Shown piece by piece: positions 411 through 36,064 of a DNA stretch of 64,000 bases. Position numbers and translations under genes: made by a program. Each line of letters starts with the position of its first letter. Position 1 is the first letter of the stretch. This DNA is from a virus. The stretch covers positions 34,811 to 98,810 of IMG/VR virus record IMGVR_UViG_3300027749_000065; one strand, written 5' to 3'. A model generated the notes under the pieces. That model was not told the origin of the DNA, did not search any database, and saw nothing but the letters and a program-made list of their open reading frames with translations.

Positions 411-1385
411 ATGACATTTAACGATTTCAAAACATTTTTTTCAAGTAACCTAAAATGGGTATATCGAGATAAATGTGATGCAGTATTTAAAAGACAATTT
501 ACTAAAATTGGTAAATATCATTTTTGTGAGAAAAATAATAAATATGGTATTCTCGATGAAGATGGTAGATGGGGGTTTGAAAATACCATAAATACTAATT
601 CAAGATGTGCATTGGAATTATATAATATTTATCTTGAGTTTGGTAATCAAAAATTAGATTTTTTTGAAAATACAGAATATTCCGTTAATAAATTATGGAA
701 TTTTATTGAAGATAATTTTGAATTACTATTCACATATAATATAGAAACAAAATATTACCATAAGTTTAGACTTATTTGTAATCTTTCTTGGTCAAGAGGT
801 CAAATAACATCAGTCTTTTTTTATTTAATACATAAAAATATATTTCCTGACACAATTAAAACAATACTTGAGTTAGAAAGAGGATTATTTTTAGATTTAA
901 AAGGAATAGATGGGTTATTAAATCAAAAAGATGGAACAGAGTTATCTTTACAAATAAAGAGTGGAACTTTTGAAAAGAAGAAATGTTTTTATATTATTGA
1001 TGGTGCTCAGAATGATTTTAATAGTCCAGCCAATTATTATTGTTACATTTATATTGGTGAAGAGAATAATCAAATTATTGTTTTTGAAAATAAAAAAGAA
1101 GGTATAATGTCAAATAATAGTCAATGTATTATTGACGAAGAAATTGTAAAATATATAGATATGGAAAATAAAGAAAATATATCACAAAAACTAATGGAAA
1201 TACTATTATTTTGTTCAAAAAATGAATTTGTTTTTGAATTAAAAAATAATGAACCAGAAAACGGTTTTAAAATCGAACTTAATCCTGAAAAAGTGGTAAC
1301 AATATCAATTAATGATTTTGAAGATAAAGGATTATATAATTTATTGGAAGAGAACTTTAATAAATTAAAGAATCTCCCCCAATAA
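411..1385 (+). CDS. Hypothetical protein, possible PD-(D/E)XK nuclease
   Basis: I recognise no named family for this 324-residue protein. The region around residues 160-185 has the look of a PD-(D/E)XK core. GID supplies an acidic residue (D167) at the end of one strand, and LQIKS supplies a Q-x-K pair (Q181, K183) on the next, with E154/E156 upstream as a further candidate ligand. The last third is a lysine- and asparagine-rich mix of beta and alpha segments. The gene stands alone between two minus-strand genes. Its 3' end overlaps the helicase gene's 3' end by 21 bases (convergent), and it has its own early-type promoter-like element. It could be a mobile or host-takeover nuclease or a conserved phage protein of other function. 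The nuclease call is inference. Confidence 0.4.
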   Translation: MTFNDFKTFFSSNLKWVYRDKCDAVFKRQFTKIGKYHFCEKNNKYGILDEDGRWGFENTINTNSRCALELYNIYLEFGNQKLDFFENTEYSVNKLWNFIEDNFELLFTYNIETKYYHKFRLICNLSWSRGQITSVFFYLIHKNIFPDTIKTILELERGLFLDLKGIDGLLNQKDGTELSLQIKSGTFEKKKCFYIIDGAQNDFNSPANYYCYIYIGEENNQIIVFENKKEGIMSNNSQCIIDEEIVKYIDMENKENISQKLMEILLFCSKNEFVFELKNNEPENGFKIELNPEKVVTISINDFEDKGLYNLLEENFNKLKNLPQ

Positions 1386-4211
1386 TTCTTTTGTAAAGGA
1401 TTCTGAATATTCACCGTCACCCATCACCTGATCTATAATGTTTTTCTTTTTATTCAACATATTATAGATTATTCTTTCTATTGTATTATCAAATATTGGG
1501 TAATAAACCATAACACCCTTTTTTTGACCATATCTGTATGCCCTATCTTCTGCTTGTGAATGTAGTGCCGGCACAAATGCCAAGTCATTCATAATTACAA
1601 CTTCTGCAGCAGTTAAAGTAATACCAACACCACCAGCAACAATATTAGAAATGAATATTTTTATCTTATCTTCATTTTGAAATTTATCAACACTATCCTG
1701 TCTTTTTTCTTTTGACATTCTACCATCTAATATTACTGAATTTTTTTTATACTTTTCATGTAACATATCCAATGTCATGGTAAAATTGGTAAAAACGATT
1801 ATTTTTTTATCTTGTTCTAACGCCTTGTCAATTAATTCACATGTATAGTCTATTTTTTCAAATGAAATTACTTGTCTAATTTTCATCAAACGATTAATTG
1901 TTACACTAATACTTTCATTATCCTTTTTTTCGTTAGATATTCTCATGAAGTTTTCTAATTCTTCCTCATAATAGGTACTTTTTAACTCCAAAAAAACTGG
2001 AGATATAATCTTCTCAGGTAAATCCAATATATCTGTCTTCATTCTTCTTAAAACAAGGTTTTTTGTACGTTCTCTTAGTTCATCTAAGTGACTAGCACCA
2101 CTAGTGTTCCATATTTTTTTACCATTTACAGTAAACTGAAATCCTTTACAATATCTTTTGACATAACTTTGCCAATTAAGGGTTAAAGGTGAATCAACGA
2201 TGCTCAAAAGATTAAAATAATTAATTGGTCTTGATGTCATTGGTGTACCTGTTAATAACCACACTTTTGGAATTTTATCTAAAATGTCATTTAATAGTTT
2301 AGTTCTATTTGCGGTGGTATTTGAAATCATATGTGCTTCATCCACAATAGCCAAATCAAATTTTTCATTTTCAATTAAATTTAATTCAGGATTTTCATTA
2401 TCTATTGCGTGGTAGTTTTTGATTATATCATAATTAATAATATAAAATTTAAATGTTGAACCCCATTTTCCACCTTCAACAATTAAAACACGTTCATCTG
2501 AATAAATCGAAATCTCTCTTTGCCAGTTAATCTTTAAAGATGCCGGACAAACAATCAATATTTTTTTAGCACCACTTTCTAAAGATGCGATCGTAGCAGA
2601 AGTTGTATTATGTGTAACAATCGCATGTTCTGCAACATATAATTTATCTGGAGAATCTACTGAAATACATGTACACTCACTTTCACCATATTTTTCAATA
2701 TTAGTGATATATCTACCCGTTGGATATTTTTTAGGTTCGTTATATAAATCTGATTTTCGTTTTAAACGAAATGGGTTCATACCTGGAGGTAATTTTATAT
2801 TTAATCTATATGATATTTTACATTCAACTCTAATTCCATTTTTTTTATAAAAACTTCTTCTTGACCTTTTTCTACAAATACCACCTAAAGTATGAACAAT
2901 TTCAGCAACATCATCACATAGTTGTTCAGACACAGTAGAAAATTCAGTTCCATTAAAATTACCATTTTTTGATTTCATACAATGTCCATCAGTATCCATC
3001 AATCCTTGTAATATTGATAGTCTATTTTCAATTGTTGTATATTTGTATATATCAGGTATAAATTTATTATGTGATCGAGTATGTTCCAAATGTAGATCGA
3101 ATAATGAATTTCCAACATTTATATAACCATTTCTTTTGTTATCTTGTGGTTTGTTTTCTTTTAATTTAAATAAACTAAATAAAGAATCATAATCATCTTT
3201 ATGAACAGAAAATTTTATATTTTTATTTTTAAATGACCCATCACCCAATCCAAGTCCTAATAAATAAGGATCAATCGGTAAAATATTTTTATTATTAAAT
3301 TCTATCGGTTTAACAATTGGTATTTGCCACTTATTATTTCCATTTGGGGATTTATAATATGTATTAATTTTGTAATCTCTATCTTCATTATAACCACTAC
3401 CTTTTATTAATATTTCCCCACCTTCAAACATTTGTTTAGTTGATAACACTAAAGATTTTTTCAATCTATCATTTTTTCTATTTTTACCATAATTTGGTGA
3501 TGAAACTGACCATAAATGTTCATCCCCACTTAAAATTGTGTATCCATCATTAAAAGTTATTTTATATGTTTCTTTTTTACCTTGAGGAAATACACCAATT
3601 ACATTACACGGTTTACCATTTGAACCAATTACCTTATCGCCAATAACAATTTCACCCATTTTTTTTACACCTAACTCATTGTAAATCAATGTATTATTGT
3701 CTAAAAATTTCCCCAAACCCATATCATCCGCCAATATGAATTTATCGTTTGCTAGTAATTTCTCAATTGCAACTTTTTGATGTTCTAATGGTGGTCTTTT
3801 ATTAAATCTTGAATAATCAATAATTCTATTTAATTTTTTTTCAGGTTGTACGATTGCTGCTTTAGGTAACCAAAATGCGTGGTTAACTTCATGTTCAAGA
3901 TATTTTCCCCATATATGATATGCCTTATCGCTTTCACATAATAATTTTTCACACCAAATATGTTCCAATTTATCTAATAATAAACGTTCATCCATTATTT
4001 TTTCAGCAAAAGAATCAACAATTTTTATGTGTTTTTTTGCCACTTTTGGTTCAACATTATGGTAGTTTAAAACATAATCAGATTGTGGGCGTGACAATTT
4101 AAAGTTCTTAACGGACGTGAACTTGTTCTTCAATTCTAATAGATGGTTATTTGCTCCACTATATTCTAATAATATTTCTCTTGCCCTAATTTCAGGAATT
4201 TTATTATTCAT
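1365..4211 (-). CDS. SNF2-type superfamily 2 helicase interrupted by an intein
   Basis: The 948-residue precursor is 581 residues without the intein. Helicase motifs are plain: Walker A DMGLGK (163-168) continuing as TT after the intein, DEAH box (624-627), motif III LLTGTPM (652-658), and the SNF2-type motif VI QAEDRAYRYGQ (886-896). Proteins of this kind translocate on duplex or forked DNA; in phages they take the place of UvsW-like helicases in fork remodelling and late replication. The intein lies exactly between Lys168 and Thr536, so the unspliced product cannot bind ATP. Transcription is divergent from the gp14-like gene across 48 bases. On its own strand, TATATTTT lies 3 bases before the ATG, like the early-type genes. 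The helicase assignment is secure; its exact role is inferred. Confidence 0.9.
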   Translation of the reverse strand: MNNKIPEIRAREILLEYSGANNHLLELKNKFTSVKNFKLSRPQSDYVLNYHNVEPKVAKKHIKIVDSFAEKIMDERLLLDKLEHIWCEKLLCESDKAYHIWGKYLEHEVNHAFWLPKAAIVQPEKKLNRIIDYSRFNKRPPLEHQKVAIEKLLANDKFILADDMGLGKFLDNNTLIYNELGVKKMGEIVIGDKVIGSNGKPCNVIGVFPQGKKETYKITFNDGYTILSGDEHLWSVSSPNYGKNRKNDRLKKSLVLSTKQMFEGGEILIKGSGYNEDRDYKINTYYKSPNGNNKWQIPIVKPIEFNNKNILPIDPYLLGLGLGDGSFKNKNIKFSVHKDDYDSLFSLFKLKENKPQDNKRNGYINVGNSLFDLHLEHTRSHNKFIPDIYKYTTIENRLSILQGLMDTDGHCMKSKNGNFNGTEFSTVSEQLCDDVAEIVHTLGGICRKRSRRSFYKKNGIRVECKISYRLNIKLPPGMNPFRLKRKSDLYNEPKKYPTGRYITNIEKYGESECTCISVDSPDKLYVAEHAIVTHNTTSATIASLESGAKKILIVCPASLKINWQREISIYSDERVLIVEGGKWGSTFKFYIINYDIIKNYHAIDNENPELNLIENEKFDLAIVDEAHMISNTTANRTKLLNDILDKIPKVWLLTGTPMTSRPINYFNLLSIVDSPLTLNWQSYVKRYCKGFQFTVNGKKIWNTSGASHLDELRERTKNLVLRRMKTDILDLPEKIISPVFLELKSTYYEEELENFMRISNEKKDNESISVTINRLMKIRQVISFEKIDYTCELIDKALEQDKKIIVFTNFTMTLDMLHEKYKKNSVILDGRMSKEKRQDSVDKFQNEDKIKIFISNIVAGGVGITLTAAEVVIMNDLAFVPALHSQAEDRAYRYGQKKGVMVYYPIFDNTIERIIYNMLNKKKNIIDQVMGDGEYSESFTKELLGEIL
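2607..3707 (-). other. Class 3-type LAGLIDADG intein in the SNF2 helicase
   Basis: A 367-residue intein spans residues 169-535 of the helicase gene. The first residue is Phe, which cannot make the usual N-terminal acyl shift. The three residues that define class 3 inteins are present: Trp234 in block B (EHLW), Cys515 at the block F nucleophile position (TCISV), and Thr533 before the terminal His-Asn (VTHN). The +1 residue is Thr. Two LAGLIDADG motifs (YLLGLGLGDG near 316-325, LQGLMDTDG near 401-409) indicate a full-length homing endonuclease domain. It is clearly related to the intein at the equivalent Walker A site of the gp41-like helicase. Boundaries follow from restoring GLGKTT. Confidence 0.88.
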
Positions 4212-31227: not shown

Positions 31228-33624
31228 ATGGAAGAAAGGAATTTCGGTTATTTGGGGGCAACATTTCAACAATCATTAATCAAAGCGATTATTGAAGATA
31301 AAAAGTATGGTGAAAACATCATTGATGTAATAGAATCTCGTTTCTTCGACAATAACGCTTTCAAGTTCATAATGGAGAACTTGAAAGAGTTATATAAATT
31401 GTATAATAAAATCCCTGACTATAATACGTTGGCACAAAAGATTATGGCAGAAAATGGTAATAAGGAATCTGCTAGAATCCACATTGACACATTAGAAATA
31501 ATTAAATCTAGTGAACCAACAGAATATGTTAAAGATACCGCACTTAATTTTTGTAAACAACAAAATTTAAAGAGGGAACTTAAAAACGTACAAAGTATTA
31601 TTGAGAATGGTGAGTTTGAAAATTATGCGAAAATTGAACAAATAATTCAAAAAGCGTTACAAGTTGGTATCATCAATGACGATGCAACAGATGTGTTTCA
31701 CGATATTGAAGGTGCGTTAGAGAAAGATTTCAGACATCCAATACCAACAGGTATCGTAGGTATTGACAACCTTTTAAAAGGTGGTTTAGGAATAGGTGAA
31801 TTGGGTGTAGTTTTAGCTCCGACTGGTACGGGTAAATCATTACCTATAAGTGAACCAATATTGACTCCAAATGGTTGGATGAAAATTGGGGATATTAAAT
31901 GTGGTGATAAAATCATAGGTTCTGATGGTAATGAACAATTTACAATAGGGGTTTTTCCACAAGGTAATAGACCAATATATAGAGTTGAATTCACTGATAA
32001 TACTTTTGTTAACTGTGATCAAGAACATTTATGGTCAGTTAATACTCTTAATATGAGAACAACAAAAATAAGAAAAAATGGTATATCTTTATATAAACCA
32101 AATAACAATTATAAAGTTATGAAAACATCTGAAATGATGTTGGATATAAAAAAACGAGGTAGATATAATTATCGTTTACCTATTGTTGAACCAATTAACT
32201 TTAATGAAAAAGAAGTATTTATTGATCCATATTTATTAGGTTTACTCTTGGGTGATGGTTGTTTAGGTTGTGGTACAATACAAATTTCAACTAAAGATGA
32301 TGAAATATTCGATAATATTAAACATTTGAATATTCATACATCATTTAATGAATATGAAAGAGAAACATTGACCGGTATAAAAACAATAAAAAAAATTTCA
32401 TTTAATTACAGAATTAAAAAAGATTTAGAAAAATATAATTTATTGGGGACAGAATCTAATAATAAATTTATCCCAAATGATTATTTATATAATTCATTTG
32501 AAGTTAGATTATCAATTTTACAAGGTTTAATGGATACTGATGGTTATGTGGATAAAAAAGGTGGTACACAAATAACGACTATTTCAAAAGAATTATCGTT
32601 AAATATTAGAGAAATAGTTTTATCATTAGGTGGAACATGTAATATAACTTTAAAACAACCAACTTTTAAATATAAAGGTTTTAAAAAGTTAGGTCAAATA
32701 GCATATGTTGTAACAATATCTTTTTCAAATAATATTGTACCATTTAGATTAATAAGAAAAATAGAAAGATTTAGAAAAAGAAAAAAATATATTTCACAAA
32801 AATATATTAAATCAATTAATTTTTCACATAACGAAGAAGCGGTATGTATAAAAGTATCAAATACAGATGAATTATTTGTTACTAGGGATTATGTATTAAC
32901 ACATAATACCACTTTATTAACTAAATTTGCAAATACTGCATATAATTTAGGATATAATGTACTTCAAGTATTTTTTGAAGATAATCCTGGTAACATTAAA
33001 AGAAAACACTATACAATTTGGTCAGGTATTGCACCTGATGAACAAAGTGATAACAAAGATGAAGTTTTGTTTCGTGTTAAAGAAATACAAAGTAATACAA
33101 AAGGTTCAATTAAATTATTGAAATTACAATCTGATGGTGTAACAATTTCTGAAATTAAATCTAAAATCAGAAAGATGTGTTCAGACGGGTTTAAGGTCGA
33201 TTTATTGTTAATTGATTATATTGATTGTATTTCACCTGAAAGATCCGTTAATGGTGATGAATGGAAGGGAGAAGGTTCAATTATGAGACAATTGGAATCT
33301 ATGACAAGTGAATTTGAGATGGCGGTATGGACTGCAACACAAGGTAATCGGTGCGTTTGGATTAAAACAATTGTTGATGTTGAAAGTAAAGGTAAAATAG
33401 AAATTAAAGACATTTCTGTAGGTGATAAAATTTTAACGCACATTGGATTTAAAGAAGTAACATATGTTTCACCAATACAAACACAACCAACATATAAAAT
33501 TAAAACAAAAAGCGGTAAAGAAATTATTGTATCAGATAAACATTTATTTCCTGTTAATTATAATAAATATAAATCAATACGTTCTGGATTATCTGTAGGT
33601 GATAAATTATTAATAAAACAATAA
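31228..33624 (+). CDS. gp41: Replicative DNA helicase (gp41/DnaB-like), N-terminal gene with a full intein and the N-half of a split intein
   Basis: This 798-residue precursor contributes the N-terminal domain (about 1-150) and most of the RecA-like motor of a hexameric 5'-3' helicase. Walker A is APTGTGK (197-203), continuing TT at 561-562 after the first intein. Walker B is LLLIDYIDCIS (659-669), and motif H3 ends WTATQGNR (701-708). At Cys709 a second intein begins and the gene stops 90 residues later. The rest of the helicase is encoded by the next gene. After cis-splicing of intein 1 and trans-splicing of intein 2 the product would be 203+148+105 = 456 residues, close to T4 gp41 (475). 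Helicase activity therefore depends on two independent splicing reactions. Confidence 0.93.
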   Translation: MEERNFGYLGATFQQSLIKAIIEDKKYGENIIDVIESRFFDNNAFKFIMENLKELYKLYNKIPDYNTLAQKIMAENGNKESARIHIDTLEIIKSSEPTEYVKDTALNFCKQQNLKRELKNVQSIIENGEFENYAKIEQIIQKALQVGIINDDATDVFHDIEGALEKDFRHPIPTGIVGIDNLLKGGLGIGELGVVLAPTGTGKSLPISEPILTPNGWMKIGDIKCGDKIIGSDGNEQFTIGVFPQGNRPIYRVEFTDNTFVNCDQEHLWSVNTLNMRTTKIRKNGISLYKPNNNYKVMKTSEMMLDIKKRGRYNYRLPIVEPINFNEKEVFIDPYLLGLLLGDGCLGCGTIQISTKDDEIFDNIKHLNIHTSFNEYERETLTGIKTIKKISFNYRIKKDLEKYNLLGTESNNKFIPNDYLYNSFEVRLSILQGLMDTDGYVDKKGGTQITTISKELSLNIREIVLSLGGTCNITLKQPTFKYKGFKKLGQIAYVVTISFSNNIVPFRLIRKIERFRKRKKYISQKYIKSINFSHNEEAVCIKVSNTDELFVTRDYVLTHNTTLLTKFANTAYNLGYNVLQVFFEDNPGNIKRKHYTIWSGIAPDEQSDNKDEVLFRVKEIQSNTKGSIKLLKLQSDGVTISEIKSKIRKMCSDGFKVDLLLIDYIDCISPERSVNGDEWKGEGSIMRQLESMTSEFEMAVWTATQGNRCVWIKTIVDVESKGKIEIKDISVGDKILTHIGFKEVTYVSPIQTQPTYKIKTKSGKEIIVSDKHLFPVNYNKYKSIRSGLSVGDKLLIKQ
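31837..32907 (+). other. Class 3-type LAGLIDADG intein in the gp41-like helicase
   Basis: A 357-residue intein spans residues 204-560, between Walker A Lys203 and Thr561. The first residue is Ser. The class 3 signature is present: Trp269 (QEHLW), Cys540 at the block F nucleophile position (AVCIKV) and Thr558 before His-Asn (LTHN). The +1 residue is Thr. LAGLIDADG motifs are YLLGLLLGDG (335-344) and LQGLMDTDG (431-439). It shares long stretches with the SNF2-helicase intein (GVFPQG, EHLWSV, IDPYLLG, RLSILQGLMDTDG) and sits at the same GK|T position, so one probably derives from the other or from a common invader. Confidence 0.9.
33352..33621 (+). other. N-terminal half of a natural split intein (90 aa)
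   Basis: The half runs from Cys709 to the end of the helicase gene. It has block A (CVWIKTIVDVES, then KDISVGDKIL) and block B (IIVSDKHLFPV, the S-x-x-H form seen in gp41-8). It ends SGLSVGDKLLIKQ, where gp41-1/gp41-8 N-halves end in GLK-type strands of the same kind. The insertion site follows TQGNR, the DnaB motif H3, as for gp41-8. There is no endonuclease domain. Confidence 0.92.
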
Positions 33625-33638
33625 AATAAAAAAAAAAT

Positions 33639-33779
33639 ATGTTAAAACATGAATTAAATTTAAACGATTTTATTTTAGATGAAATCGTTAGTATCGAGTT
33701 AGAGGGTGAAAATGAAACAATTGATATATCTGTTGATGAAACTGAGTTGTTTTTTGCAAACGACATATATACACATAAT
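33639..33779 (+). other. C-terminal half of a natural split intein (47 aa)
   Basis: The residues run from Met1 to Asn47 of the downstream helicase gene. The length and text (FFANDIYTHN, then Ser) closely match C-halves of the gp41-1 and gp41-8 group. Together with the 90-residue N-half it makes a 137-residue endonuclease-free intein with Cys1, terminal His-Asn and +1 Ser. Confidence 0.92.
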
Positions 33780-34097
33780 TCATCAATTTCATCTGAAGTT
33801 GTTACCGCAGATCAAATGGGTGGTTCTATTAAGAAGGCACAAATTGGTCACGTTATCTTATCTATCGGTAAAACATTAGAACAAAAAGATCACAATTTGG
33901 CAACTTTAACATTACTTAAATCTCGTATTGGTAAAGATGGTGTAGTTTTTCAGAACTGTAAATTCAATAACGAATATTTAGATATAGATACTGAGATGCA
34001 AAACACTCTATTAGGTCATGAAGAAGAGAAGTCAAAAAATAATATTAATAGAGCTAGAGAGGCGTATCAAAGAAGAAATCAAATTGCAAATAATTAA
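33639..34097 (+). CDS. Replicative helicase C-terminal fragment fused to the C-half of a split intein
   Basis: The first 47 residues are an intein C-half: ETIDISVDETELFFANDIYTHN is split here as block F (ETIDISV, DETELFFANDI) and block G (YTHN). After it comes Ser48 as the +1 nucleophile and 105 residues of helicase C-terminus (SSISSEVVTADQMGGS, then IGHVILSIGKT and LLKSRIGKDG), matching motif H4 and the arginine-finger region of DnaB-type helicases. The gene starts 14 bases after the upstream stop, in another frame, so a stop codon and a frame break both separate the halves. Alone, this polypeptide has no ATPase core. It must trans-splice with the upstream product to give an active helicase. 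Confidence 0.92.
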   Translation: MLKHELNLNDFILDEIVSIELEGENETIDISVDETELFFANDIYTHNSSISSEVVTADQMGGSIKKAQIGHVILSIGKTLEQKDHNLATLTLLKSRIGKDGVVFQNCKFNNEYLDIDTEMQNTLLGHEEEKSKNNINRAREAYQRRNQIANN

Positions 34098-34111: not shown

Positions 34112-36064
34112 ATGAAAAAAAAGGGAATTTTTAATAAACGAGTCAACATTTTACCATACGATTATCCATCACTTTTATTGTATAAAGACGCTATAAGACA
34201 TTCATATTGGATAGATACAGAGTATAATTTTACCACTGACATAAATGATTATATGGTTAATATAACAGAAAATGAAAAGGATGTGATTAAAAAAACAATG
34301 TTAGCTATTGCACAAATAGAAGTCAATGTTAAAACATTTTGGGCGGATATGTATAAAAGAATGCCAATTACTGAAATTGGTGATGTTGGTATGACATTTG
34401 CCGAATGTCATGTTGAAGGAACTGAAATTTTAACACCTCAAGGTTGGGTTGATTTTAATAAAATTAATATTGGTGATGAAGTGATACAATTCAATCCTGA
34501 TAATACTTTAAATGTAACCATAGTAAATAATAAAACATATGAAAATTATAATGGTATTGTACATAGAATTTATAAGGATAATTTAGATACAATAATAACA
34601 CCAAATCATCGAATTGGATATTATAATCATAAAAACGAATTTTCAATCAAAGCTATTGAGGATTTAGGTGTAAGAAACGCTAACAATAGATTACCAGAAG
34701 CTGGAAAGTTAATTGGTGATGTTGATGAGTTATCAACATTAGATAGGTTAAAAATCGCAATACAGGCTGATGGTAGTAAAAGGTTTTTTACCAATAAGTT
34801 AGGTGAAAGAATTGATAGGGGATTAAGTAAAGATTCTAACACATATGAGATTTCAGTTAAAAAAAATAGAAAGAAAGAAAGACTTTTATATCTATTAAAT
34901 AATACTGACATAAAATATAGAACATATAAAGAAAAAAGAGGTTATTTAAAAGTTGAATTTGAAATGGATATGTCTTTTAATTACAAAACATTTGATTGGG
35001 TTAATTTAAAAGATAAATCATGGAAATGGTGTAAAGAATTTGTTCAGGAATTATCAGAATGGGATGGGTATAAGTTACCATTAAAAAAAGATTGTAAAAT
35101 AAAATATACAACAACAAATAAAAGTTGTGCGGATATTGCTCAAGCAATTGGTACATGTGCAGGATATAAAGTGAATTTCATCACTAGTGTTGATAAAAGA
35201 AGTGATAATTTTAATGATAATTACGTTTTATCTTTTTTAGAAAATAGAGAAAGAGTTGGATTTTCTGCATTAAAAGAGGAAAAATTAAATTATGATGGTA
35301 AAATATATTGTGTTAGCGTTGATTCTGGTATGATAATCACTAGATATAATAATAAAACATTTATAGGAGGTAATTCAGAAGTTAGACATAAAGACGCTTA
35401 TGCTAGATTACTTAGAATTTTAGGATTGGAAGATGAATTTAGAACAGTTGTTGAAATACCAGCAATAAAGGATCGTATAAAATATTTGACAAAATATATA
35501 GATGGTACTAGAAGTGACGATGATAAAATGTATACGAAATCAATTTTACTTTTTTCATTATTTATTGAACACGTATCTTTATTTTCTCAATTCTTAATAA
35601 TGATGAGTTTTAATAAAGAAAAAAACCTTTTTAAAGGAATTTCAAATGTTGTTGAAGCAACTTCAAAAGAAGAAAATATACATGGTAATTTTGGTGCTGA
35701 AGTTATTAATATAATAAAATCGGAATATCCAGAGTGGTTTGATGAAGAATTTACCGAATTAATTACATCTGCATGTAAAAAGGCATATAAAGCAGAATGT
35801 AAAATACTTGATTGGATATTTGAAAAGGGTGAATTGGAATTTTTATCAAAAGAAACCATAAAAAATTTTATAATGAACAGGTTTAATAATTCATTACAAA
35901 AAATTGGAATAGACCCTATTTTTAATGTTGATTTAAAAGAAATTGAAAAAACATTGTGGTTTGATGTTGAAACTACATCAACAAAAGAAGGTGATTTTTT
36001 TTATAAAAAACAAATTGACTATAATAAAAAAAGTAAAAGTATAGGTGAGGACGATTTATTTTAA
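34112..36064 (+). CDS. nrdB: Ribonucleotide reductase small subunit NrdB with an intein
   Basis: The 650-residue precursor is 327 residues after removal of the intein. NrdB houses the di-iron/tyrosyl radical cofactor for class I ribonucleotide reduction. The N-extein has YWIDTEYNF (about 32-40) and KTFWADMYKRMP. The intein interrupts FAE|SEVRH, the helix whose E-x-x-H (Glu423, His426) supplies iron ligands, so the unspliced protein cannot assemble the cofactor. The C-extein has LFSLFIEHVSLFSQF, then ATSKEENIHG (second E-x-x-H, here EENIH), and ends with an acidic SIGEDDLF tail, the kind that docks into NrdA. It is followed by nrdA 9 bases later, in the reverse of the common nrdA-nrdB order. 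Confidence 0.92.
   Translation: MKKKGIFNKRVNILPYDYPSLLLYKDAIRHSYWIDTEYNFTTDINDYMVNITENEKDVIKKTMLAIAQIEVNVKTFWADMYKRMPITEIGDVGMTFAECHVEGTEILTPQGWVDFNKINIGDEVIQFNPDNTLNVTIVNNKTYENYNGIVHRIYKDNLDTIITPNHRIGYYNHKNEFSIKAIEDLGVRNANNRLPEAGKLIGDVDELSTLDRLKIAIQADGSKRFFTNKLGERIDRGLSKDSNTYEISVKKNRKKERLLYLLNNTDIKYRTYKEKRGYLKVEFEMDMSFNYKTFDWVNLKDKSWKWCKEFVQELSEWDGYKLPLKKDCKIKYTTTNKSCADIAQAIGTCAGYKVNFITSVDKRSDNFNDNYVLSFLENRERVGFSALKEEKLNYDGKIYCVSVDSGMIITRYNNKTFIGGNSEVRHKDAYARLLRILGLEDEFRTVVEIPAIKDRIKYLTKYIDGTRSDDDKMYTKSILLFSLFIEHVSLFSQFLIMMSFNKEKNLFKGISNVVEATSKEENIHGNFGAEVINIIKSEYPEWFDEEFTELITSACKKAYKAECKILDWIFEKGELEFLSKETIKNFIMNRFNNSLQKIGIDPIFNVDLKEIEKTLWFDVETTSTKEGDFFYKKQIDYNKKSKSIGEDDLF
34406..35374 (+). 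other. LAGLIDADG intein in NrdB, ending Gly-Asn
   Basis: A 323-residue intein spans residues 99-421. It starts with Cys99 (CHVEGTEILTPQGW), has block B TPNH (163-166), LAGLIDADG-like motifs LKIAIQADG (213-221) and VQELSEWDG (311-319), and block F IYCVSVDSGMIITR. It ends FIGGN before Ser422. The penultimate residue is Gly, not the usual His, a change known in some active inteins that use another route to Asn cyclisation. It is unrelated in detail to the two class 3 inteins nearby. Confidence 0.88.

What the first reader, a model, noticed from the sequence alone, without database searches (positions are those of the whole stretch)
33352..33779. Natural split intein divides the replicative helicase into two adjacent genes
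Seen: the helicase gene reaches motif H3 (TATQGNR), continues with an intein N-half starting at Cys and stops after 90 residues. After 14 bases and in another frame, a 152-residue gene starts with a 47-residue intein C-half ending THN, then Ser and the rest of the helicase. Known: the gp41-1 and gp41-8 split inteins from environmental phage helicases have the same host gene, similar half lengths and, for gp41-8, the same NR|S site. Inference: this is a new member that trans-splices. The halves are adjacent with nothing between them, unlike fractured genes that carry an endonuclease in the gap. The window does carry separate endonucleases of the EDxHD type linked to such genes.
Basis: partly seen in the sequence, partly recalled or inferred. 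Interest (0 to 1): 0.9.

Follow-up and report, generated by a model that had tools for sequence, protein, structure and literature searches.

The report
Split intein joining a phage helicase
A phage's replication helicase is encoded as two neighbouring genes whose products carry matching halves of a self-splicing protein (an intein), so the enzyme is very probably stitched together after translation; relatives show how the endonuclease gene that once sat between such halves can be lost while the split remains.

Summary
Helicase ORF 31228-33624 ends in a 90-residue N-intein; after 14 nt, in another frame, ORF 33639-34097 starts with a 47-residue C-intein ending THN, then Ser and the rest of the helicase. 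No single indel restores one frame. gp41-1 is the best solved match to both halves and the class 1 catalytic residues are present, so trans-splicing is very likely; it was not tested. At the same site I found 68 distinct interrupted helicases: 46 split with gaps over 900 nt (42 with an ORF of at least 300 aa, 41 of these bearing an EDxHD-like motif), 15 split with shorter gaps (the window's included) and 7 fused cis mini-inteins. Endonuclease remnants in short gaps, and a pair of alleles differing by a 937-nt deletion of the endonuclease gene, show that such genes can lose the endonuclease and stay split; the window looks like an end point. All 68 have Ser+1, where 67 uninterrupted relatives have Glu, Asp or Gly. 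Best filed as an endonuclease-free variant of the gp41-type fractured-gene split intein. The same record carries a classical fractured split intein in its dUTPase, outside the window.

The parts
31228..33624 (+). DnaB/gp41-type replicative helicase, N-terminal gene (798 aa including two intein segments)
   Evidence: phrog_19 DnaB-like replicative helicase, 1.6e-40; its intein also draws terminase and other phrogs that hold inteins
31837..32907 (+). cis intein of 357 aa at the Walker A motif (GTGK|S...THN|TTLL) with LAGLIDADG endonuclease domain; class 3-like Trp/Cys/Thr pattern judged by eye (EHLW, AVCIKV, LTHN)
   Evidence: (PF14528, PF05204); class 3 described in passages of PMC4031507 and PMC7765530
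33352..33621 (+). N-intein (IN), 90 aa: Cys1, block B His64 (SDKH), ends VGDKLLIKQ*
33622..33624 (+). stop codon of the N gene
33625..33638 (+). 14-nt A-rich gap with an in-frame TAA (33627-33629) for the C frame; no endonuclease gene, no detectable remnant
33639..34097 (+). C-terminal helicase gene (152 aa)
33639..33779 (+). C-intein (IC), 47 aa: block F Asp29 (aligned with gp41-1 Asp107), ends His46-Asn47
33780..33782 (+). Ser+1 nucleophile (TCA); Asp (GAT) in the four closest uninterrupted relatives
33780..34094 (+). C-extein: rest of the helicase (105 aa, Ser+1 included)

Best explanation
The two adjacent genes make one helicase by protein trans-splicing. Shown by sequence: the split, the two halves, the host gene, the catalytic residues, and relatives with the same site. 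Inferred: the two ORFs are translated from one message with the second start close behind the first stop; IN and IC associate into one HINT-fold class 1 intein; the N-extein passes via Cys1 to Ser+1, Asn47 cyclises, and the ligated helicase ...QGNR-SSISSEV... is released. The Walker A intein of the same protein must also be removed, in cis. Origin (inferred from relatives): the element descends from a fractured gene with an EDxHD/Vsr-like homing endonuclease gene between the halves; it entered this helicase lineage together with its Ser+1 codon; the endonuclease gene was lost, before or after arrival, and the split was left behind.
For: Halves, stops and frames. gp41-1 (6QAZ) is the best solved match to N (2.9e-12) and C (5.5e-4). 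Over 68 same-site loci: Cys1 in 67, Ser+1 in 68, C-terminal HN in 67. Block B His64, block F Asp29 and His46-Asn47 are invariant in 8-row alignments. The AlphaFold2 model of a fused same-site relative (L101, pLDDT 94.1) has 6QAZ as best PDB match, TM 0.93, rmsd 1.1. Start signal: the 20 nt before the C-half ATG are 80% A, against a mean of 53% for 38 other gene starts that I picked from the ORF list and 39% for 1,463 other ATGs; in relatives L116 and L123 stop and start overlap as TAATG and ATGA. Constraint: dN below dS for both halves in window against L111 (IN 0.34/0.83, IC 0.13/1.7). Origin: of 46 same-site loci with gaps over 900 nt, 42 have an ORF of at least 300 aa, 41 of these with the endonuclease motif; N-halves are 89-91 aa in 52 of 61 split loci; the window's nearest intein in the tree is endonuclease-bearing L111 (86/88, not starred); six short gaps hold clear endonuclease remnants; L186 and L188 differ by one 937-nt deletion that takes the start and most of the endonuclease ORF, with 9 differences in 1,472 nt upstream and 0 in 400 downstream.
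Against: No expression, splicing or read-level data. The window's gap has no detectable endonuclease remnant (best E 0.015 in a one-sequence search space, where reverse-strand readings reach 0.036), so loss is inferred from relatives. Its place beside L111 is not starred. The only other contig with this allele is 8,456/8,456 identical and may not be independent. No phage isolate with this intein at this site was found.
Confidence: 0.91

Rival explanations
1. The helicase works as two non-covalently associated chains and the intein halves do not splice, as in the phage ribonucleotide reductase in pieces.
For: An enzyme split by a homing endonuclease gene that keeps its function as two peptides is mentioned in passages of PMC10448857 and PMC3653736.
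Against: A complete, conserved class 1 catalytic set in both halves, and Ser+1 in 68 of 68 interrupted loci where 67 of 67 uninterrupted ones have Glu, Asp or Gly, are expected of splicing and not of mere association.
Confidence: 0.04
2. Sequencing or assembly error: the true gene is one continuous cis mini-intein.
For: A run of ten A lies in the gap, and fused cis forms exist at this site in relatives.
Against: The stops of both frames lie before the A run, so no indel in the run and no single indel elsewhere gives one frame; identical second contig, perhaps not independent; relatives have adjacent but differently spaced splits, some on more than one contig.
Confidence: 0.03
3. A dead or decaying helicase gene, with another helicase doing the work.
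For: The window's intein branch is long (0.40 against a median of 0.18).
Against: Exteins 92-97% identical to uninterrupted alleles (L005-L008), dN below dS in the halves, catalytic residues kept.
Confidence: 0.02
4. Frameshifting or polymerase slippage on the A run makes a continuous cis precursor.
For: A10 run next to the junction.
Against: N-frame translation stops before the run; the short-gap relatives differ in spacing (-10 to 452 nt) and frame.
Confidence: 0.01
5. On origin only: the split arose from a nonsense break in a cis mini-intein, or the element arrived already without its endonuclease gene (for instance moved by an endonuclease in trans), instead of losing it in this lineage.
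For: Cis mini-inteins exist at this site; uninterrupted alleles with 94-97% C-extein identity point to a recent arrival.
Against: The N-half end is shared with endonuclease-bearing loci, and in a 100/94 clade the cis forms lie among split ones, which speaks against a break of a cis form. Arrival without the gene is not excluded.
Confidence: 0.25

Closest known systems
gp41-1 split intein (PDB 6QAZ, 6RIZ)
   Same: Best solved match to both halves; a fused same-site relative shares the fold, TM 0.93; the N-half matches gp41-1 up to its residue 90.
   Different: Sequence divergent (41% identity in the structural alignment of the relative L101); the host insertion sites were not compared here.
gp41-8 split intein
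   Same: By recall: helicase host gene, similar half lengths, NR|S junction. PMC11766414 (passages) names it among highly active split inteins from metagenomes.
   Different: Its sequence was in no call, so neither site nor identity was tested.
Fractured genes with split inteins and EDxHD/Vsr-like homing endonucleases (Dassa et al. 2009; not held; recalled)
   Same: Most same-site relatives found have this arrangement; three gap ORFs examined match PF04480 above and PF18741 below the curated cut-off, with an IIEFDGDYWH-like motif.
   Different: The window's gap is 14 nt with no endonuclease gene.
PolB split intein of Pseudomonas phage MIJ3 and the PolB mini-intein of Salicola phage SCTP-2 (PMC6892783, passages)
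   Same: A printed precedent for one gene with a split intein plus endonuclease in one phage and a similar contiguous mini-intein in another.
   Different: Other host gene, HNH endonuclease; the passages describe no adjacent endonuclease-free split.
Fractured gene 41 of Shigella phage ESh36 (ON528746.1)
   Same: T4-type helicase split by an intein with a 332-aa ORF in the gap.
   Different: Different insertion site (SDIAE|C ... TKN|SAGL); gap ORF present; record marked UNVERIFIED.

Membership tests
Split intein (class 1) | N- and C-splicing halves on separate ORFs, each fused to part of one host protein | tested here: met
   PF14890 matches at profile positions 12-78 (N) and 115-155 (C), both under its curated cut-off; the exteins together align with uninterrupted helicases
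Split intein (class 1) | Cys/Ser at position 1, block B His, C-terminal His-Asn, Cys/Ser/Thr at +1 | tested here: met
Split intein (class 1) | Trans-splicing activity | not testable with these tools
   needs expression of both halves
gp41-1-like inteins | Closest homology and fold to gp41-1 | tested here: met
   for the window halves, among solved structures; the fold only for the fused relative L101
gp41-8 intein | Same insertion site and sequence kinship to gp41-8 | not tested
   no gp41-8 sequence in any call; Carvajal-Vallejos 2012 and Beyer 2020 not held
Fractured gene (Dassa et al. 2009, recalled definition) | Free-standing endonuclease gene between the intein halves | tested here: not met
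   14-nt gap in the window; in relatives 42 of 46 long gaps have an ORF of at least 300 aa, 41 with the motif
Fractured gene (Dassa et al. 2009, recalled definition) | Descent from the same split-intein lineage as endonuclease-bearing loci | tested here: met
   same site, same N-half end, placed among endonuclease-bearing loci; support next to the window is moderate (86/88)

The most novel reading that the evidence does not exclude
At this one helicase site, split inteins go through a full cycle in nature: fractured gene with endonuclease, endonuclease deleted while the split persists (several times, the window being one end point), and re-fusion to a cis mini-intein. The split halves remain mobile or exchangeable afterwards, even by swapping the N-half alone, cut exactly at the splice junction (L119 against L203, L123 against L131).
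Probability: 0.55. Interest if true: 0.78.

Novelty: new variant of a known kind. Interest (0 to 1): 0.6.

Why it matters
How split inteins arise, and why they stay split once the selfish endonuclease is gone, is open. Here one site in one gene offers fractured, endonuclease-deleted, adjacent-split and fused alleles among close relatives, so the order of events and the cost of splitting can be tested directly. Adjacent, endonuclease-free pairs related to gp41-1 are also candidates for new ligation tools, and the same phage must keep two split inteins (helicase, dUTPase) from cross-reacting.

Tried and rejected
Looked for this intein in phage records. DNA search: none. C half: 15 records under 60% identity, in genes named RecA (Bacillus phage fHSPT3) or terminase (14 Mycobacterium phages); I opened the fHSPT3 one and its intein sits at the Walker A motif of a RecA-like protein, another gene and site. 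N half: 8 records, namely ESh36 (other site), a Vibrio phage terminase (not opened) and six Prevotella Lak records, of which one was opened and holds a 157-aa stand-alone intein-like ORF. Helicase segment: 24 distant helicases, not checked for inteins. A genome-contig scan gave 84 pattern matches and no relative. Two DNA-pattern scans of viral contigs for further alleles of the window found only the known contig. No match to L009's gap endonuclease in the 98.8-kb record (no positive control). The dUTPase-gap endonuclease of the same record is not close to L111's gap endonuclease by BLASTP (E 0.058), though it and L009's both match phrog_22677.

Co-conversion around the insertion was tested and left as weak: mismatches to L005 are denser in the last 150 nt upstream (22/150 against 18/270, Fisher p 0.009), but not to L008 (18/150 against 20/270, p 0.15).

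I expected the C half to track the host better than the N half once N-half swaps were seen. Over 55 rows the reverse holds (r host-IN 0.80, host-IC 0.61), so the N-half swaps are two observed pairs, not a shown general trend.

The intein tree carries little clustering of states: the endonuclease label needs 15 changes against a shuffled mean of 16.9 (as low in 91 of 500 shuffles), the four states together 17 against 19.0 (15 of 200). This fits repeated change, but also a weakly resolved tree.

Rows dropped before counts: of 77 rows, nine were left out for the count of 68 (listed): L149, L150 (unrelated host), the odd cis row of L145, L084 (other site), and five rows that began at the Walker A intein (L004, L090, L115, L123, L131). 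The 68 are distinct by sequence, not independent lineages, and searches were capped at 80 loci of 203 and 109 relatives. The intein tree also left out L130 (Tyr at position 1), L145 and identical proteins (59 rows); the host tree used rows with over 200 aa plus 16 uninterrupted loci that I chose from 67 (71 rows).

Paper searches on endonuclease-free adjacent split inteins or re-fusion listed nothing that I recognised as describing them. I saw listings with abstract starts, and passages of eight papers; none was read whole. Dassa 2009, Carvajal-Vallejos 2012 and Beyer 2020 are not held, so 'not described before' is unproved.
Full report
What is there. The helicase ORF 31228-33624 runs through motif H3 (WTATQGNR), enters a 90-residue N-intein (33352-33621) and stops at TAA 33622-33624. 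After 14 nt, in a frame shifted by two, ORF 33639-34097 begins with a 47-residue C-intein (33639-33779, ending THN), then Ser+1 and 104 further helicase residues. The C frame has a TAA of its own at 33627-33629, so at least two changes would be needed for one frame, and the A10 run lies after both stops. The window is 34811-98810 of a 98,810-base virus record. The same DNA, 8,456 of 8,456 bases, is on contig IMGVR_UViG_3300009182_000200; two pattern scans of viral contigs found no other copy.

It is an intein of the gp41-1 kind. The N-half matches the gp41-1 crystal sequence 6QAZ at 2.9e-12 and the C-half at 5.5e-4, the best solved matches for each. Pfam's Intein_splicing model is hit below its curated cut-off by both halves, in complementary parts (12-78 and 115-155 of 155). 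Cys1, block B His64, block F Asp29, His46-Asn47 and Ser+1 are all present, and are invariant in 8-row alignments with relatives. A contiguous same-site relative (L101) folds with mean pLDDT 94.1 and its best PDB match is 6QAZ, TM 0.93, rmsd 1.1. The window halves themselves were not folded together.

The same site elsewhere. Three scans of viral contigs (two of them capped at 80 loci) and a script gave 68 distinct interrupted loci after nine rows were dropped: 46 split with a gap over 900 nt, 15 split with a shorter gap (the window's allele included), and 7 with one open frame through a mini-intein of 129-132 residues. All 68 have Ser at +1; 67 have Cys at position 1 (L130 has Tyr). Of the 46 long gaps, 42 hold an ORF of at least 300 aa, and 41 of these have an IIEFDGDYWH-like motif; L145 has it in a second, separate ORF, and four gaps have only shorter ORFs. 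Three such ORFs examined (L009, L011, L014) match PF04480/DUF559 above and PF18741 below the curated cut-off, both nuclease-like families. A passage of PMC12350094 describes EDxHD/Vsr-like homing endonucleases with repeated N-terminal domains in phages. The 80 loci kept (of 203 relatives) comprise 13 with the intein and 67 without; the 67 have Glu (62), Asp (4) or Gly (1) at the residue that is Ser+1 in interrupted genes. The window's nearest relatives, L005-L008, have Asp GAT where the window has Ser TCA, all three bases different. So the Ser codon belongs to the element.

How the window's form arose. In the host tree (71 rows) the window helicase sits with uninterrupted L005 and L008 (100/99, starred), in a clade of 19 rows of which 16 are uninterrupted, so the intein is a late arrival there, or is retained there alone. 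In the intein tree (59 rows) its nearest neighbour is endonuclease-bearing L111 (86/88, not starred). Endonuclease-free states are scattered: 'adjacent' needs 5 changes (2 forced by starred branches), 'remnant' 9 (7 forced); overall the endonuclease label is hardly more clustered than shuffled labels (15 changes against 16.9). Short gaps form a decay series: clear endonuclease remnants in L186, L090, L169, L207, L134 and L217 (E 1e-42 to 3e-18), weaker ones in L179, L119 and L203 (2e-6 to 6e-6), marginal in L116 (0.0025), none in L124, L115, L131, L123 or the window, all in a search space of one where the best reverse-strand reading scores 0.036 (the profile includes L188, L186's near-twin). 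The best single case: L186 and L188 are the same allele (9 differences in 1,472 nt upstream, none in 400 nt downstream, 289 of 289 shared gap bases) except for one 937-nt deletion that takes the start and about three quarters of the 404-aa endonuclease ORF. Fused forms such as L101 are 98% identical to split L013 in the N-half and 97% in the C-half, and lie among split rows in both trees, which suggests re-fusion; the trees do not give direction by themselves.

Translation. The 20 nt before the C-half ATG are 80% A, against 53% on average for 38 other gene starts that I picked from the ORF list and 39% for other ATGs. With a 14-nt spacing the second ORF could be reached by a re-initiating ribosome; in L116 and L123 stop and start overlap (TAATG, ATGA). 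This is inference; none of the SD-like motifs scanned for stands before the ATG.

Splicing burden. The same helicase has a 357-aa cis intein with LAGLIDADG domain at Walker A (31837-32907). By eye its Trp/Cys/Thr pattern is that of class 3 inteins as described in PMC4031507 and PMC7765530 (passages). One helicase thus needs one cis and one trans splicing event. Outside the window, the same record has a dUTPase gene fractured in the classical way: N-part with N-intein, an endonuclease-like ORF, C-part with C-intein (LHN|CGYRGE). This phage therefore probably runs two split inteins, one with and one without its endonuclease gene. Its nearest RecA/UvsX among isolates is in Flavobacterium phages (38.8% identity), so a Bacteroidota host is likely but not shown.

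An unexpected side result. L119 and L203 are nearly identical for 900 nt upstream (3 mismatches) and through the C-half and C-extein (2 in the bins listed), yet the first 225 nt of their N-halves, from the Cys1 codon on, are 65% identical. L123 and L131 show the same pattern (97% over the 400 nt upstream, 67% N-half, 96% C-half), though they differ more again 600-800 nt upstream. L203's allele is on three contigs and L131's on three; L119 and L123 are on one each. Assembly chimeras are not excluded, and a wider test did not show that N-halves move more than C-halves in general.

Against the reading. No splicing data; moderate tree support beside the window; no remnant in the window's own gap; possible non-independence of the second contig; distinct loci are not independent lineages; a printed precedent for split and contiguous inteins in one phage gene exists (PolB of MIJ3 and SCTP-2, PMC6892783, passages). 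Dassa et al. 2009 could not be read, so the recalled statement that its loci all carry an endonuclease gene, and hence the novelty of endonuclease-free forms, is unverified.

Verdict. Real, correctly interpreted, and best filed as a new variant of the gp41-type, fractured-gene split intein: the endonuclease-free, adjacent form. The wider value lies in the allelic series at this site.

Noticed in passing
L001 (G000:C1:15916-19173, minus strand; outside the window): dUTPase gene fractured by a second split intein, with an EDxHD-like endonuclease ORF (282 aa) between the halves: N-part 2488-3195, endonuclease 1583-2431, C-part 1312-1611.
   Followed up: partly
L119 and L203; L123 and L131: Pairs of near-identical alleles whose N-intein halves are replaced, starting at the Cys1 codon, while exteins and C-halves stay nearly the same.
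   Followed up: partly
L186 and L188: Same allele with and without a clean 937-nt deletion that removes the start and most of the gap endonuclease ORF.
   Followed up: yes
L099, L100, L101, L107, L121, L126, L130: Fused cis mini-inteins at the same helicase site, some 98% identical in the N-half to split alleles; L130 has Tyr in place of Cys1.
   Followed up: partly
window 1365-4211, minus strand (intein about 3707-2607): SNF2/UvsW-type helicase with a 367-aa LAGLIDADG intein at Walker A whose first residue is Phe; the HLW / CTCISV / VTHN pattern suggests a class 3 intein, which does not use a nucleophile at position 1.
   Followed up: partly
window 34406-35374: 323-aa intein in the ribonucleotide reductase small subunit next door (FAE|CHVEG...GGN|SEVRHKD).
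   Followed up: no
L084 (ON528746.1, Shigella phage ESh36): Tequatrovirus gene 41 fractured by a split intein at a different site, with a 332-aa ORF in the gap annotated as hypothetical.
   Followed up: partly
L090, L011, L115, L123, L131: Walker A inteins of relatives start with Glu (L090) or Ala (the others) instead of Ser, in keeping with class 3.
   Followed up: no
L230 2441-2914 (Prevotella phage Lak-A2): A 157-aa stand-alone intein-like ORF ending VNHNSGTNF without a recognised host gene around it.
   Followed up: no
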